Of a DNA stretch of 64,000 nucleotides, positions 9,117 to 62,855 are shown in pieces. Under the pieces are notes generated by a model that was not told the DNA's origin, ran no database searches, and was given only the letters and a program-made list of their open reading frames with translations. How positions within the stretch are numbered: the first letter of the stretch is position 1; each line of letters starts with the position of its first letter. The position numbers and the translations under genes were made by a program. This DNA is from Thermoanaerobacterium sp. RBIITD (lineage in GTDB: Bacteria; Bacillota; Thermoanaerobacteria; Thermoanaerobacterales; Thermoanaerobacteraceae): positions 992,001 to 1,056,000 of the forward strand of contig NZ_LT906662.1 in NCBI RefSeq assembly GCF_900205865.1, given 5' to 3'.

Positions 9117-11114
9117 TTATTCTATTCTAAATTTTTTAACAGATTCCATAAGTATGTCTGCATATTCTTTTAATTGATTTGCAATTTTTGCAAGTCCCTC
9201 TACAATTGCCGCTTGCTCTATTGATGTTGCCGATACCTCTTCAATGGACGCGGCTGTTTCCTGAGATACTGCAGCTATATCTTGTATCGTATTGACTATG
9301 GAATTTTTATTTTTCTCAATCCCTTTCAGTGATTTATTAAGCCCATCAATCTTTTCCATTACGAATCTCACCGCTTCTTTTATGCTTTCAAACATCTCTT
9401 TTGTATTATAAACTGAATTACTTTGCTCATTTGCTATAATATTGGAGTATTCAACTTTCTTAACAGTTTCTTCTATATCTTTTTGTATTTCTATAATCAA
9501 TGAAGCTATTCTTTTTGCAGCATCTGATGATTGATATGCTAATTTTCTTACTTCGTCGGCTACAACGGCAAATCCTTTACCACTTTCACCAGCTCTCGCA
9601 GCTTCTATTGCCGCATTTAAAGACAGCAAGTTTGTTTGATCTGCCATGCGTTTTATTGTATCTACTATTTCCCCAATCTGGTTTGACTTTTTCTTTAACA
9701 ATATAGTAGAACTTTTGACATTGTTATTAGAGTCAATGCTAAGGCGTGTTTTATCTGTCAGGTCATTGATAATATCCATTCCTGATTTTGATATCTCATT
9801 TACATTATTTATTTCACCAAATATGTCTTTTACATCATCTATTGATCCGTCTATAAGTTTTCCAAGATTTGATGCGGATTCAGCACTATTTTGTGCATTT
9901 TTCGACTGGCTCGAGGCTCCTTCTGCAATCTGTTGGATAGCTTTTGACACATCCTGCATGGACAGCGATACTTGTCCGGAAGAATTCTCGAGGTTTTTTG
10001 ATATAGTATTTATAGATGATGATATTTTACTTATATTATCTATAAGTGACTTTATTCCATTTATCATTATATTATAGCTTTTTGATAAAGAGCCTATCTC
10101 ATCATTTGATTTGATTGATAACATTTCTGTTAAATCACCTGATGAGGCCTTTCGCATTATTTTATTTAACTTTTCAATATTTAAAGTTATTCTTTTAGTA
10201 AATATTGATGCAAATAGGAGTCCAATAATAATACATACAATACTTATCAGAATTATACTGTATTTTATTTTTGATACATTTTCATTTAATTCCGAAGTAT
10301 TCATATTTATAACAGCTTTCCATCCAAAGTCTTTTAATTTATGTATAGATGCAAACTTTTGCACAGCATTGTCAAAATAATCAATTGTTTTATCATTTAA
10401 TGCCAATAATTTTTTACCGTAACTTAATTTATTTACATTAGTATATAATAGTTTATTATTTTTGTTTGCTATTATATACCCATTATCTGATATTAGAGAT
10501 ACTTCACCTGTCTTTCCTATTTTTATGTTTGAAATAATTGTAGATAATGAATCAAAATTTATATCAATTGCAATAACACCTACTATATCAAACTGTGGGT
10601 TTCTTACAGCTTTTGATAATGTTATTACACCCGCGTTTGTATTATTATCACTGTATGGCCCCGACCATATTACTTTATCTGGATTTTTTATGGCTTCGGT
10701 GAACCATTTTTGCTTAGTGGGATCATAATCTCCACTAATTGGTATATCCGGCGTTCTAATCAATTTTTTATCTGGTGTTGCTAAATATATTAAAGATATT
10801 TTTTTGTTTGTTGTTATTATATTTTGAAAAAACGTTTGTAAATTTTTCTTATCTTGATCAAAATTTCCTTTGTTATAATTTATTATATTATCAGAAGCAG
10901 CTAAAATATTTATCTGTGATTCGGCACTATACTTAAAAATGTTTACATTGTTGTCTATAAGATTAAATATATCATTATTTGCAGAAATTATGTTGTTCTT
11001 AAGTATGGTTTTAGATTTTTCAGTTGATAAATATCCTGCAATAGTTAAAGGGAAAATTATTATTATTAATATAAAGGTTAATAATTTTGAAAAAAGGTTC
11101 TTCGTTAAAAACAT
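9117..11114 (-). CDS. Methyl-accepting chemotaxis protein with a Cache-type sensor domain
   Basis: A 665-residue chemoreceptor. An N-terminal membrane segment (about residues 10-30) is followed by a periplasmic-side dCache-like sensor ([49 protein letters not shown]), a second membrane segment near 285-305, a HAMP linker, and the signalling domain with the canonical hairpin tip, readable as [20 protein letters not shown]. It should pass ligand binding to CheA/CheW. A PDC/Cache domain of this kind usually binds amino or organic acids; the ligand here is unknown. The ATG follows AGAGGAGAG. No other chemotaxis gene is nearby, so it acts with a core system encoded elsewhere. Confidence 0.94.
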
Positions 11115-58507: not shown

Positions 58508-59419
58508 TTATCTAGAATAATAAAAGAACCATACATCTTTTTCTTTTTTATCTTGCCTTATATCACTTATTGCATAATTTTGATTTTTATATTCAGCAGC
58601 AACTTTTTCAGCATCTTCTTTTGCATCTTTAATTCTTATATACATTTTGCCATTTGAATTTTTACCTTGAAACAGTTGATAATCATTTCTTTCTTTAGAA
58701 TGTTTTTTATTCCACTCTTCATGGCCCAATGGTTTTGCCTTTTTAATAGCTTCTATAATTTTATTAATTTGTTCTTCCGAAATATTATCACCTTTAATTT
58801 TTTTTATTTCACCAACTGCCTCCATACCACCTATAACCACTGGCATATTGCAGTTTTCTGCTTTAACCCATTTTGCTCGTTTAAACACCACAATAGGATA
58901 TATATTTTCTTTCACTTTCTCGTAAATTTCAGGTAAATTTTCTTCCAACCATTTTTTAAATAATTTAATATGTCTCTAATTTTGCTTAGTAGGGCTTTTA
59001 ACTTCGACCCACTTATTGCCTTGTCTCATTCTCCACTTATTTTTTAAGCCTAAAAATACACCATCCCATGATTTTGTCTCTAATACAAATATCCCATTAG
59101 AATTAAGTACAAGATGAACAATCTGTATAAAATCATCAGGCACAGGCTCTAAAACAAGGTCATTTACTATTACTGCATCACTTGGAAGCCAGAAATGCAA
59201 AGCCCAGCTTACTGAATTTTCGCCTGAATTCCCCTGCTCTTTCTCTGAATCGCGTCTCCATGTATATGCAATATCTGCAATAGGTTCTAATAGCCATCCA
59301 AAAAAGCCTTCACTAATTTTATCCAGATGTTTCTGCTTTTCTTTTTCCATTTTTTCTTTAATCTTTTGATAAAAAATTTCCTTAACTTCTTCATCTTGTT
59401 CTACAAAACTGGCAAACAT
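58508..59419 (-). pseudogene. NERD-domain (nuclease-related) protein interrupted by an amber codon
   Basis: Two consecutive open stretches in the same frame (59419-58976 and 58973-58508) are separated by a single TAG at 58976-58978. The first part contains SGENSVSWALHFWLPSDAVI and FVLETKSWDGVFLG, the NERD domain with its (D/E)...ExK-like catalytic ETK. The text around the stop reads KSPTKQN-stop-RHIKLFKKW, matching the expected run of NERD proteins, so a sense codon such as AAG was probably mutated to TAG. The second part could still be started at a TTG nine codons later, but has no ribosome site. Intact length would be 302 residues. NERD proteins occur widely in defence islands; function unknown. 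Confidence 0.72.
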
Positions 59420-59579: not shown

Positions 59580-60377
59580 CTATATTCCTCCTTGCCACAT
59601 GCTGTACTTTACTCTGCTTAAGTCTTCACCATCTTCAGGCTTTCTAAATACAAATAAATGCTCATGCATTATTAAATAAAAATTGTATTTTTCTACTTGA
59701 CTTCTCCAATATGGTGTTGATTTGCAATTATGTTGTACCTTTATAATATCTTCCTTCAATATAAAACCATTTTTTAGAAAAAGTTGCATTACATAAAAAG
59801 CCAATGGAACATAATGTCCGCTTTTTCTAGTGTCACCTATTAATATTGCACAATACCTATTATTCTTTAAAACCCTAAAAAGCTCTAAAACACCCTTTTC
59901 TAACTCACTTAAAAATTTCTTTATTCCTGAAATATTTGATAAATCACCATCTATATTACCATTTGAATATTTTATAATATTTAGATATGGAGGATGCGTT
60001 ATAATTAAATCAATACTGTTGTCATCGATTCCTTTAAGATTTCTAATATCACCTATTTTTACAACAGGTTCAAATTTATATTTACCACTAAAATTAGCAC
60101 CGAAATTCAAATTTCGTTTTGTAATATCGATTGCATCAGGATTAATATCAAAACCAATTCCTCTCCTATTCAATAATTTTGCTTCTACCAAAGTAGTACC
60201 ACTTCCAACCATGGGATCTAATACAACATCATTTTCTTTTGAATAGCGCAATATAATATTTCTTGGAACTTGCGGTGCAAAATTTCCTCTGTATTTACCG
60301 CTATGAGTTGCCCAATCTCCTCTTTCCGGAAATGACCAAACAGTTGTTATTTCTTTCTTGAAATTTATATCCTCCAT
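59580..60377 (-). CDS. DNA N4/N6 methyltransferase, second methylase of the DpnII-type operon
   Basis: A 265-residue methylase. The SAM motif (VLDPMVGSGTTLVEAKLL) precedes the catalytic motif (LIITHPPYLN), a gamma-like order without an obvious large target-recognition domain. This is unlike DpnA, whose DPPY precedes its SAM motif, so it is not a direct DpnA relative even though it fills the same place. It overlaps the restriction gene by 13 bases at its start (60377), so the two are cotranslated. It could methylate the same GATC site, another strand form, or a different base; the sequence does not say. HPPY in place of DPPY/SPPY is a slightly unusual catalytic box. Confidence 0.85.
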   Translation of the reverse strand: MEDINFKKEITTVWSFPERGDWATHSGKYRGNFAPQVPRNIILRYSKENDVVLDPMVGSGTTLVEAKLLNRRGIGFDINPDAIDITKRNLNFGANFSGKYKFEPVVKIGDIRNLKGIDDNSIDLIITHPPYLNIIKYSNGNIDGDLSNISGIKKFLSELEKGVLELFRVLKNNRYCAILIGDTRKSGHYVPLAFYVMQLFLKNGFILKEDIIKVQHNCKSTPYWRSQVEKYNFYLIMHEHLFVFRKPEDGEDLSRVKYSMWQGGI

Positions 60378-61288
60378 AAGATTTCCTCCAATAACCCTTG
60401 GCGTACAAAGTGAAGATTTAATAGATAATTAACTTTTTCAAAGCCTTTATGCAACTGACTCTTTTGTCCTCTCCAACCAATTCCATCGGTTATCCAGATG
60501 AATTCAAAGCCATTTTCTTTTAATTCATTTTGCCTTTCTATATAAGAATCAACTATTTCTTGAGGTTTTGAACCAGTCCCCGAATAAAAATTGACTTCTA
60601 TATTTATAACTTTATTGCCATTTTTTATTATAATAAAATCAGCTTTTCTATTTTTAATTGAAGAATTTACATATATGTTATAATTATCGTCTAAGTACTG
60701 AAACTTTTTTTGAAATAATATATCAAAAGAACTTTTTCCCTTAGATGCTATTTTCTCAATCATCGGTTTTAACATCAATTCCATAGCATCTCCACTTCTG
60801 TTTTTACGTGCATTGGTATCCATACCAACTTCGACACCTAGCACGTAATCTTGTACACTTTTTGAAGATAATTCAAGAAAAAATCTCTTTAAACCAGTTT
60901 TTTCAAAGAACTCAACAATATCGTCAATATCTGTGTTTGTCAAAGTCTTTTTATTAAAATCATAATGAACAATGTTAAAATTCTTATCAATAAAATCATC
61001 AATAACTGTCAGCTTTTGTTTTCGTATTGCTAATAAAATTGGAATAGTAGGAAGAACTTGAGGATAATTTGACAAAATTTTTCTTAAATCGTCATCAAAT
61101 TGCTTATTCCCAATTAATGTGTTTAAAATATTAAACTCAATCTTATACTTATCAACGTGTCTTTTTACTTTGTCCCAATCCACAAAAAATTTATAATTCC
61201 TATTTGTGTCAACCAATGTATTGTGAAATTTTTCTATAACATCTTCTAAATTTTTCATTCCTAAAAAATCAAAATAGATTGAATCCAT
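60365..61288 (-). CDS. dpnB: DpnII-type restriction endonuclease (GATC)
   Basis: A 307-residue DpnII-family endonuclease, full length. Diagnostic segments are VGMDTNARKNRSGDAMELML, the nuclease core NRKADFIIIKNGNKVINIEV (acidic D...ExN-type metal site) and GSKPQEIVDSYIERQNELK with FEFIWITDGIGW. Members cut unmethylated GATC. The gene lies between the Dam-type methylase and the second methylase, in one leftward operon. The family match is strong; the site specificity is inferred from family and from the linked Dam methylase. Confidence 0.93.
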   Translation of the reverse strand: MDSIYFDFLGMKNLEDVIEKFHNTLVDTNRNYKFFVDWDKVKRHVDKYKIEFNILNTLIGNKQFDDDLRKILSNYPQVLPTIPILLAIRKQKLTVIDDFIDKNFNIVHYDFNKKTLTNTDIDDIVEFFEKTGLKRFFLELSSKSVQDYVLGVEVGMDTNARKNRSGDAMELMLKPMIEKIASKGKSSFDILFQKKFQYLDDNYNIYVNSSIKNRKADFIIIKNGNKVINIEVNFYSGTGSKPQEIVDSYIERQNELKENGFEFIWITDGIGWRGQKSQLHKGFEKVNYLLNLHFVRQGLLEEILWRI

Positions 61289-61307
61289 ATAAATCCCCCT
61301 AATAATA

Positions 61308-62267
61308 TTAAAAATTCCTAATTATAAGCTCATTAATTGCTCCCCGTCCATTACCTTTGCTATTAATGTATCTTTTTGCACTAACTCTTTCGATGATAAA
61401 CTCAGAATATAACTTATCAAAAAAATCATCATCTTTATCAATGTTTTTAGGATCTGAATTGCTTAATATTAAATAAGCTCCTTTTTTATCCATCTCTTTA
61501 AAAAACTCAGATAATCTTACTTGATCACAATCATCAAATCCAGATTCATTGTATGATGTGAAATTTGAAGTCGAACTTAAAGGCCGATACGGTGGATCAA
61601 GATATAAAAGGCTACCTTTTTTTACATATTTTTTTGACTCTTCGAAATCTGCACATATTATTTCTGTGTCTATTAATGCTTTACTGACCTCATATAAATT
61701 TTCTTTATCACAAATTTTAGGCTTATTATATTTGCCAAAAGGCACATTAAAATTCCCATTTTTATTTAATCTATATAAGCCATTAAAGCAAGTTTTATTT
61801 AAAAAAATCAAGTAAGAAGCTCTTTTTATCCAATCAGAATTATACATAAAATAATCAAATGTATCTTTTTGAGTGTTATACTCTTCTCTAACATTGTAAT
61901 AAAATTTTTTTCTTTCTTCATCTGATAATTGTAAATATTTGCGTTCAATATTTTCCAATTCGAATATTAAATCTTCTACATTATTTTGTACAGCTGTATA
62001 TCCCACAATTAACTCTTTATTTGAATCTATCAAAAAAGATTCTTTTACGTTATAATTATTTTTTAAAAAAAAGAAAAAGGCTCCTCCACCTACAAAAGGT
62101 TCAATATAACTTTCTATCTCACGTTTCTGTATTATTGGTAATGGTAATCTACTATTTAGCTCGTTTAAAAGTTGAGTTTTGCCTCCAGCCCATTTTAAAA
62201 ATGGTTTTGCATTAACCATAACACATTTCTTATTATCAATGCCATTTATTACAAGTTGCTCATTCAT
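61308..62267 (-). CDS. dpnM: Dam-type adenine methyltransferase (DpnM-like, D12 class)
   Basis: About 319 residues. Motif I is KPFLKWAGGKTQLLNEL, the catalytic box is LLYLDPPYRPLSSTSNFTSY, and FVGGGAFFFFL lies between, in the alpha-class order of Dam/DpnM enzymes, which methylate the adenine of GATC. It protects the cell from the following DpnII enzyme and comes first in the operon, as expected for safe establishment. The frame extends to 62288; GGATGGGAT favours the ATG at 62267, though an ATG 16 codons later, directly before NAKPFLKWAGG, is possible. A promoter and a tandem palindrome array precede it. Confidence 0.94.
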   Translation of the reverse strand: MNEQLVINGIDNKKCVMVNAKPFLKWAGGKTQLLNELNSRLPLPIIQKREIESYIEPFVGGGAFFFFLKNNYNVKESFLIDSNKELIVGYTAVQNNVEDLIFELENIERKYLQLSDEERKKFYYNVREEYNTQKDTFDYFMYNSDWIKRASYLIFLNKTCFNGLYRLNKNGNFNVPFGKYNKPKICDKENLYEVSKALIDTEIICADFEESKKYVKKGSLLYLDPPYRPLSSTSNFTSYNESGFDDCDQVRLSEFFKEMDKKGAYLILSNSDPKNIDKDDDFFDKLYSEFIIERVSAKRYINSKGNGRGAINELIIRNF

Positions 62268-62311
62268 TATAAAATCCCATCCATCCACTAAGTCACAATT
62301 TTTCTTTTTTA

Positions 62312-62339
62312 ATTATACCATCAAATAAATTTTATTCAA
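62312..62339 (-). promoter_or_regulatory. Promoter of the DpnII-type operon
   Basis: On the minus strand TTGAAT (62334-62339) and TATAAT (62312-62317) are 16 bp apart, some 45 bp before the methylase start. Confidence 0.75.
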
Positions 62340-62351
62340 AAAAATATCAAT

Positions 62352-62395
62352 TAACTTGTGAGTTATTAACTTTAAAGTTAGTAACTCATAAGTTA
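62352..62395. promoter_or_regulatory. Three tandem 14-bp palindromes at 15-bp period
   Basis: TAACTTGTGAGTTA (62352-62365), TAACTTTAAAGTTA (62367-62380) and TAACTCATAAGTTA (62382-62395) share TAACT-N4-AGTTA, separated by exactly one base. The array starts 12 bp upstream of the -35 box of the restriction-modification operon, so it looks like a multi-dimer binding site, more likely for an activator than a repressor. Confidence 0.85.
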
Positions 62396-62444
62396 ACAAA
62401 TTACACTTGCTTATAGAAATATTTTTATAAAACCAAATAGACTA

Positions 62445-62855
62445 TCACGTAAAAGACGGAAATATTTTGTCTTTACTAGCTCTGCCTGTCAAAATGTACC
62501 TCTCTAGCTCGTCTATGTTATAGTTCCTCTGAGAATATGAATTAAAATAGTTCCGCGGTACTTCATAATTAGTTTTTTTATTCTGCGTGCTTTCTATTTG
62601 TGAAAACAATTCTTTTTCTTTTACATAATTTTCTGCAACTTTATTTAGAAATTTTGCAGGGTACTTAATCTCTTTTCCCTTCATCCTTGATAAGCAAACT
62701 TTTATATCGTCGTCATTCAATTTGTACTTGCTTTTTATAGCATCAATTATGGCGCTTGATATTATGCTTTCGTTTTTTGATTTAGTAAAATTTGATACTT
62801 CATTTTTTGATTGCCCTATTTTATTGTATTTTTCTGCCTCTTCCTTGAGCTTCAC
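62445..62855 (-). pseudogene. C-terminal remnant of a replication-protein-like gene
   Basis: 136 codons, charged and lysine-rich, containing KGKEIKYPAKFLNKVAENYV and ending RNYNIDELERYILTGRASKD plus a short tail. The form, with a tail of aromatic-arginine followed by DELE, recalls the C-termini of DnaD-like or plasmid/phage replication initiators, which I can only suggest. The nominal start is a GTG without a ribosome site, and the protein-like frame continues further upstream (FNTLESVPSYVKL) until it meets the end of the GNAT gene. It is therefore most likely a fragment of a longer gene, joined to the GNAT gene by rearrangement. Confidence 0.5.

What the first reader, a model, noticed from the sequence alone, without database searches (positions are those of the whole stretch)
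62352..62395. Three 14-bp palindromes in exact 15-bp register upstream of a DpnII-type operon
TAACT-N4-AGTTA occurs three times with one base between copies, placed 12 bp upstream of the -35 box. Arms are identical in all three while the four-base centres differ (TGTG, TTAA, CATA), so selection appears to act on the arms and spacing. DpnII systems I know of have no dedicated controller, and no C-protein gene is visible in this operon. A 15-bp period places dimers on changing faces of the helix, implying a cooperative filament-like or unusual binder. This may be an undescribed regulator of a restriction-modification system.
Basis: partly seen in the sequence, partly recalled or inferred. Interest (0 to 1): 0.65.

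Follow-up and report, generated by a model that had tools for sequence, protein, structure and literature searches.

The report
Orphan switch of a defence gene
Three evenly spaced DNA palindromes in front of a bacterial restriction system look like a stray copy of a control site that normally sits in front of a little-studied suspected anti-virus gene, and most genes of that family examined here, in bacteria and archaea, carry a site with the same 15-letter spacing.

Summary
The array is real: TAACT-N4-AGTTA x3 at 62352-62395, 15-bp period, the genome's only copies. It is not specific to DpnII: two of nine DpnII operons in the family have it, one degenerate, and at the same site it precedes an MZA-like operon in two relatives. 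Elsewhere in the class it lies at genes, or relics, of an ATPase_2-DUF234 protein, PADLOC candidate PDC-S27: 20 of 25 places; the other five are the window's site. The period recurs across that family: it stands out alone in 24 representatives (21 with Z above 2) and is the best period in 19 of 19 further genes, haloarchaea to Bacteroides. Other genes (6 of 152), DUF4143 sister ATPases (0 of 19) and ten of 17 viral homologues lack it. A model of one relative shows an NLR-like ATPase, a MarR-like winged helix and a nuclease-like domain. Best reading: the protein represses its own promoter through this operator; the window holds an orphan copy, its genome having no such gene. Binding and DpnII control are unproven.

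The parts
62352..62365 (.). palindrome 1, TAACT TGTG AGTTA
   Evidence: exact match
62367..62380 (.). palindrome 2, TAACT TTAA AGTTA
   Evidence: exact match
62382..62395 (.). palindrome 3, TAACT CATA AGTTA
   Evidence: exact match
62334..62339 (-). -35-like TTGAAT of the DpnII operon, 12 bp from the array
   Evidence: consensus match only
62312..62317 (-). -10-like TATAAT, spacer 16
   Evidence: consensus match only
61308..62288 (-). Dam-type D12 methylase (GTG at 62288, or ATG at 62267)
   Evidence: PF02086 E 2e-61; TIGR00571 above cut-off
60365..61288 (-). DpnII endonuclease
   Evidence: PF04556 E 8e-87
59580..60377 (-). second methylase (position of DpnA, recalled)
   Evidence: PF01555 E 6e-31
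62445..62855 (-). truncated gene upstream, whose 3' flank is the hotspot; 136 aa here, 362 aa in L004
   Evidence: no Pfam match

Best explanation
The array is an operator of the kind that sits in the promoters of ATPase_2-winged helix-DUF234 genes (PADLOC candidate PDC-S27). In those genes it lies close to the start of the gene, and the encoded protein most likely binds it through its winged helix as a cooperative oligomer with one unit per 15 bp, repressing its own gene until its NLR-like ATPase is triggered. The copy in the window is an orphan: it stands at a defence hotspot in front of whichever operon occupies the site (DpnII here, MZA-like in relatives), in a genome with no DUF234 protein found. 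It is either the remains of a lost ATPase gene or a site recruited earlier; at present it is probably unbound. Shown: the arrays, their places, the 15-bp period in most of the family sampled, the absence of the gene here. Inferred: self-binding, repression, triggering, lack of present function.
For: (1) In the class, 20 of 25 array places lie at the ATPase gene or its relic, 18 of them about 15-32 bp from the start of the protein match; the other 5 are the window's orthologous site. (2) Period 15 alone is enriched upstream of the family: mean Z 3.68, 21 of 24 representatives above 2. In 19 further genes from plasmid and phage records, Bacteria and Archaea, 15 is the best of periods 8-25 in 19 of 19, Z above 2 in 15. 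(3) Specificity: 152 other ORFs of the same loci mean 0.24, 6 above 2; DUF4143 sister ATPases 0 of 19. (4) Half-sites differ between subfamilies, judged by eye, while the period stays, and operator similarity follows protein similarity (r 0.46-0.52; permutation p 0.0005 for the winged-helix correlation). (5) A model of a relative has a winged helix at 243-305 that aligns with a MarR-family protein (3E6M), Nur, a Pyrococcus heat-shock regulator and HmgR at 1.8-1.9 A over 60-66 residues. (6) G000 has no DUF234 match and no homologue of the ATPase at E 0.001. (7) Arrays outlive the gene elsewhere: G404 keeps an array with a stub of the ATPase start (0 of 300 shuffles as good); G366 has a similar stub by eye, not confirmed by the alignment test.
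Against: No binding data. The covariation does not single out the winged helix over the ATPase domain (partial r 0.05, p 0.20), and among the 1091 pairs of 1225 with ATPase-domain identity under 50% it nearly vanishes (r 0.09 and 0.17). Perfect 5-4-5 palindromes exceed shuffles (p under 0.05) in only 8 of 24 representatives, although longer dyads do so more widely (35 of 50). No trace of ATPase coding sequence is detectable beside the window's array, so a relic origin is not shown. Its position upstream of -35 differs from the ATPase genes: in 6 of 7 TAACT-type representatives the array follows TATAAT. Of 17 viral homologues only 6 exceed Z 2. In relatives at the hotspot the array is no better kept than its downstream flank: a shared 3-bp deletion in three, substitutions in one.
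Confidence: 0.7

Rival explanations
1. The array is a live cross-regulation site: a DUF234-ATPase, when present in the cell, controls whichever defence operon sits at this hotspot, including DpnII. (Shares the operator's identity with the best explanation, so the odds overlap.)
For: Array at the hotspot in 5 of 9 genomes of the genus, before DpnII in two and an MZA-like operon in two; the fifth, G016, ends at a contig end. G012 carries both the site and a full ATPase with its own array. All three palindromes are perfect in the window.
Against: No ATPase match in G000, G014 and G016 (the last only 89% complete), and only the C-terminal part in G018; in G012 the hotspot array is damaged; 4 of 9 genomes carry the same kinds of operon there without an array.
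Confidence: 0.17
2. A third-party regulator, not the ATPase, binds all these arrays.
For: Protein binding is not shown; winged-helix-specific covariation not found. In 4 of 17 annotated plasmid loci a regulator-like gene lies within 400 bp.
Against: Tight cis-linkage to one gene family across Bacteria and Archaea; those four neighbours are annotated differently from one another and the other 13 of 17 loci show none within 400 bp except one cyclic-nucleotide-binding protein; half-sites differ between subfamilies of the ATPase.
Confidence: 0.13
3. A dedicated, undescribed controller of the DpnII operon binds the array.
For: Array 12 bp upstream of the -35-like box.
Against: 7 of 9 DpnII operons in the family lack it; it precedes another operon and ATPase genes.
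Confidence: 0.04
4. It acts as an RNA hairpin or DNA cruciform.
For: The minus strand of 62305-62400 folds as RNA better than shuffles (z -3.1).
Against: In the window it lies upstream of the proposed promoter, so would not be in the operon's RNA; no Rfam match in 62100-62600; some relatives have direct repeats at 15 bp rather than obvious hairpins, e.g. haloarchaeal genes next to the start codon (by eye).
Confidence: 0.03
5. End of a mobile element or dispersed repeat.
For: Presence is patchy at an insertion hotspot.
Against: The segment with its flanks is found only at this locus, in 5 of 24 genomes of the order; elsewhere the array core matches at ATPase promoters, besides a few short A+T-rich matches (which scored at most 35 candidates a genome).
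Confidence: 0.03

Closest known systems
PDC-S27 (PADLOC phage-defence candidate; ATPase_2 PF01637 + DUF234 PF03008)
   Same: the gene behind the array matches PDC-S27 at E 9e-62 over residues 2-409
   Different: in the passages seen of the two listed papers that name PDC-S27 no operator or regulation is described; the window has the operator without the gene
C proteins of type II restriction-modification systems
   Same: operator near the promoter of an R-M operon; autogenous control (review PMC12707154, passages seen)
   Different: no C gene in the operon; arms, spacing and distribution are tied to another gene family
BrxR/CapW, CapH+CapP, CapK+CapS
   Same: repressors with palindromic sites that control varied adjoining immune operons (PMC13373217 and PMC9122589, passages seen)
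   Different: those are separate regulator genes; here the proposed repressor is itself an ATPase with a nuclease-like domain, and the site has repeats at 15 bp
Archaeal ATPases PAB2304 (2QEN) and SSO1545 (2FNA)
   Same: same ATPase plus winged-helix part: 2QEN Z 17.3, 2FNA Z 15.4 over model residues 1-316
   Different: these chains of about 350 residues align only up to model residue 316, so they lack the C-terminal nuclease-like part

Membership tests
DUF234-ATPase (PDC-S27) operator | palindromic half-sites repeated every 15 bp | tested here: met
   exact triple; family period
DUF234-ATPase (PDC-S27) operator | located in the promoter of a DUF234-ATPase gene | tested here: not met
   no such gene found in the window's genome; hence 'orphan copy', not a full member
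DUF234-ATPase (PDC-S27) operator | bound by the ATPase | not testable with these tools
   needs EMSA or footprint
DpnII-type R-M operon | Dam-type methylase, DpnII endonuclease, second methylase side by side on one strand | tested here: met
   co-transcription not tested
C-protein-controlled R-M system | small HTH controller gene in the operon | tested here: not met
   on the operon strand 59580-62288 holds only the three genes among ORFs of 60 aa or more
NLR/STAND-like ATPase (the array's usual gene) | NLR-like ATPase followed by winged helix | tested here: met
   model of relative L212 (pLDDT 77) aligns with 2QEN, CED-4 and plant NLRs over about residues 1-320; the chromosomal proteins themselves were not folded
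PD-(D/E)xK nuclease domain | nuclease fold and D...ExK motif | tested here: met
   D388, E401, K403 nearly invariant in 26 sequences; residues 345-465 align with 1Y88, 2VLD and EndoMS, Z 9.8-10.9, whose fold class is recalled; Pfam Mrr_cat only below cut-off; activity not tested
MZA defence system (operon at the same site in relatives) | MzaA above its curated score | tested here: not met
   G012's protein: NCBIfam MzaA 226 bits against a cut-off of 800; PADLOC MzaA E 1e-45 over part of the model; hence only 'MZA-like'

The most novel reading that the evidence does not exclude
DUF234-ATPases are an ancient class of NLR-like immune nucleases, shared by Bacteria and Archaea, that repress their own genes by assembling on a DNA array with a fixed 15-bp step. 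Other defence operons, such as DpnII in the window, have captured that array and so come under the same switch.
Probability: 0.2. Interest if true: 0.85.

Novelty: new variant of a known kind. Interest (0 to 1): 0.6.

Why it matters
The gene family behind the array is common and little characterised: PMC12988326 counts 3503 PDC-S27 systems in Archaea and 4562 in Bacteria and says validation is pending for most such candidates (passages). A conserved operator gives an immediate handle on it: which DNA it reads, how it is held silent, and what releases it. It also shows how a stray operator can come to lie in front of another defence system.

Tried and rejected
Dedicated DpnII operator: rejected by counts. 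Dispersed repeat or mobile end: rejected. Known RNA: no Rfam match in 62100-62600. Relic of an ATPase gene at the window's site: flanks of G000 and G012 compared with two ATPase leaders and promoters in both orientations, 16 comparisons, the best reached by 9 of 300 shuffles, not convincing. The same test finds a clear relic in L251 (0 of 300) and fails in L250 (214 of 300), where the stub is short. Covariation of operator with the winged helix beyond the rest of the protein: not found. Match G013:C56: looked at and taken as chance beside a transposase-like ORF (label recalled). A single-protein search of viral contigs for the ATPase found no relative; the alignment search found 18. Seventeen of these 18 were used; L228 (48 residues) was dropped. 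In one search, 50 representatives of 77 were used. Of the 24 representatives, drawn from 52, two (L070, L160) are upstreams of truncated or relic copies; without them 19 of 22 exceed Z 2. The 19 genes are 17 of 160 plasmid records and 2 of 8 phage records with a match, chosen for spread before their upstreams were seen; L169-L171 share much of their upstream, so they are not independent. Literature: searches; among the titles and abstract starts listed (capped at 8-25 rows; one search had 2,270 papers, 10 listed) none describes an operator of this family. Only CC0/CC BY/CC BY-SA papers of PubMed Central are held. The SSO1545 structure paper is not held.

Full report
THE OBSERVATION. The window contains TAACT-N4-AGTTA three times at 62352-62395 with exact 15-bp steps. 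The genome, 3,402,993 bases in one contig, has no other copy. The array ends 12 bp upstream of TTGAAT-16-TATAAT, which leads into a methylase, DpnII endonuclease and second methylase on the minus strand. The closest named locus is from Thermoanaerobacterium butyriciformans (L004, methylase 92% identical), so the genome is probably a Thermoanaerobacterium (inference).

IS IT TIED TO DPNII? PF04556 occurs in 9 of 20 genomes of the family. Two have the array: the window and G018, where it has lost register (a 3-bp deletion) and where the endonuclease match comes in two pieces. Seven lack it: G013, G015, G017 of the same genus and G004-G007 of another. Two distant methylase loci (L005, L006), not checked for DpnII, also lack it.

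THE HOTSPOT. The gene just upstream (62445-62855) occurs in 9 of 9 genomes of the genus. After its stop codon come: array then DpnII (G000, G018); array then a sigma-70 gene and a RecQ-like helicase resembling MZA (G012, G014); array then contig end (G016, whose flank matches G012 and G014); DpnII without array (G013, G015, G017); a gene that starts like the sigma-70 gene, without array (G019). Family searches for the MZA-like operon were run on G012's proteins only. So array and operon vary independently.

WHERE THE ARRAY NORMALLY SITS. A two-copy form of the array (Y-N-N-R centres, one mismatch allowed) occurs in 20 of 37 genomes of the class, in 25 distinct places. In 20 places the N-terminus of one 460-residue protein, or its relic, lies beside it: 18 at about 15-32 bp from its first residue, one relic at 63 bp, and one at 3.5 kb beyond a transposase-like ORF (label recalled). 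Among the 18 are truncated or relic copies too (L107, L109, L114). The other five places are the hotspot. In 398 genomes of the phylum the exact form occurs in 17, and its letter-reversed control in none. Of the 18 places there, 13 lie at the ATPase and two (G366, G404) at stubs of it. Three do not: the window, a second array in G208 before an S41-peptidase-like gene, and one in G155 near type III CRISPR-like genes close to a contig end (both labels recalled from the sequence).

THE PROTEIN. It carries ATPase_2 (residues 2-202) and DUF234 (311-408) and matches PADLOC's PDC-S27 (E 9e-62). Winged-helix Pfam models match residues 244-286 only below their cut-offs. A model of a viral-contig relative (465 residues, 8 sequences, pLDDT 77, pTM 0.68) shows three parts. 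Residues 1-316 align with 2QEN (Z 17.3) and 2FNA (15.4), and about the same stretch with NLR and CED-4 proteins (Z 11-13). Residues 241-306 align with MarR-family and other winged helices (1.8-1.9 A over 60-66 residues; an RNA polymerase III subunit at 1.5 A). Residues 345-465 align with 1Y88 and archaeal repair nucleases (Z about 10). All, which warns that middling Z is common. D388, E401 and K403 of the nuclease motif are nearly invariant.

A 15-BP RULE IN THE FAMILY. I collected 52 distinct upstream regions. In 24 representatives the autocorrelation over 105 bp has one outstanding period: 15, mean Z 3.68 against dinucleotide shuffles, 21 of 24 above 2; every other period from 8 to 25 has mean |Z| of 0.64 or less. 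The three below 2 are L094, L095 and L101; two of the 24 are relic or truncated copies. A second set of 19 genes from haloarchaea, Methanocaldococcus, Fusobacteriota, Bacteroides, Vibrio, rhizobia, Rhodothermus and others gave 15 as best period in 19 of 19, Z above 2 in 15, mean 3.57. Controls: 152 other ORFs of 150 aa or more in the same loci, mean 0.24, 6 above 2 and 3 above 3; 19 DUF4143 sister ATPases, mean -0.33, none above 2, though most are near-orthologues of each other and for a few the start is uncertain. Seventeen viral homologues: 6 above 2, all with at least 39% identity, and in two of these six (L213, L214) period 11 scores slightly higher than 15; L217 shows 1.5; L211 (48% identity) and the nine with 29% identity or less do not show it. 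The sites are also dyads (36-37 bp, mean Z 3.45, 35 of 50 above 2), and the best 15-bp window is centred at a median of 40 bp before the start codon. Perfect 5-4-5 palindromes as in the window exceed shuffles in 8 of 24. Half-sites change with the subfamily: TAACT/AGTTA, TATACTT/AAGTATA, CTACTC/GAGTAG, AATC/GATT types (subfamilies judged by eye).

MECHANISM. A site fixed in spacing but variable in letters, at the gene's own promoter, and a winged helix inside the protein, argue for autoregulation. Where the array directly follows TATAAT (6 of 7 TAACT-type representatives), repression is the natural reading. Release on infection is inference from the NLR-like ATPase and the defence label, which rests on a guilt-by-embedding approach (PMC12988326, passages). 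Operator similarity follows protein similarity (r 0.46 for the winged helix, 0.52 for the ATPase domain), but the winged helix adds nothing beyond the rest (partial r 0.05, p 0.20), and among divergent pairs the correlation is weak (0.09 and 0.17). That leaves a third-party binder possible.

THE WINDOW'S COPY. G000 has no DUF234 match and no homologue of the ATPase at E 0.001. Flanks show no ATPase trace. Among the five hotspot arrays, four have lost perfection; the window's is intact, which with so few sequences does not show selection. I therefore call it an orphan operator with no shown function at DpnII, and give live cross-control a probability of 0.17.

NOVELTY. Self-controlled defence operons are known (C proteins, BrxR/CapW, CapH+CapP, CapK+CapS, passages). 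I saw no description of an operator for DUF234-ATPases in the listings and passages of the held papers (lists capped); whole-word DUF234 occurs in one held paper (listing only).

Noticed in passing
L104:3298-3326 and 10730-10758; L105:1440-1468: Two viral contigs of one metagenome carry exact two-copy TAACT arrays among small phage-like ORFs, with no ATPase among the ORFs listed near them; possible decoy or phage operator.
   Followed up: partly
window 62445-62855: Gene upstream of the hotspot is truncated to 136 aa here; 362 aa in L004.
   Followed up: partly
L022/L049 (G018): DpnII endonuclease match is split into two pieces behind a degenerate array.
   Followed up: no
L186-L203, e.g. L192 (G000:C1:825533): DUF4143 ATPase genes share a different upstream stretch (AAAGTATACTTT...), not of period 15.
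   Followed up: partly
L249:4266-4294 (G208): Second, two-copy array 1.2 kb from the ATPase gene, upstream of an S41-peptidase-like gene (label recalled).
   Followed up: partly
L252:4052-4080 (G155): Two-copy array near type III CRISPR-like genes and repeats close to a contig end (label recalled).
   Followed up: partly
L250, L251: Arrays kept beside stubs of the ATPase: a short open frame that begins like the protein, in L250 running on into what looks like its nuclease motif (by eye for L250).
   Followed up: yes
window 58976-59419: NERD-domain ORF of 147 aa; a 306-aa relative lies in L041:2462-3382, so this one may be truncated.
   Followed up: no
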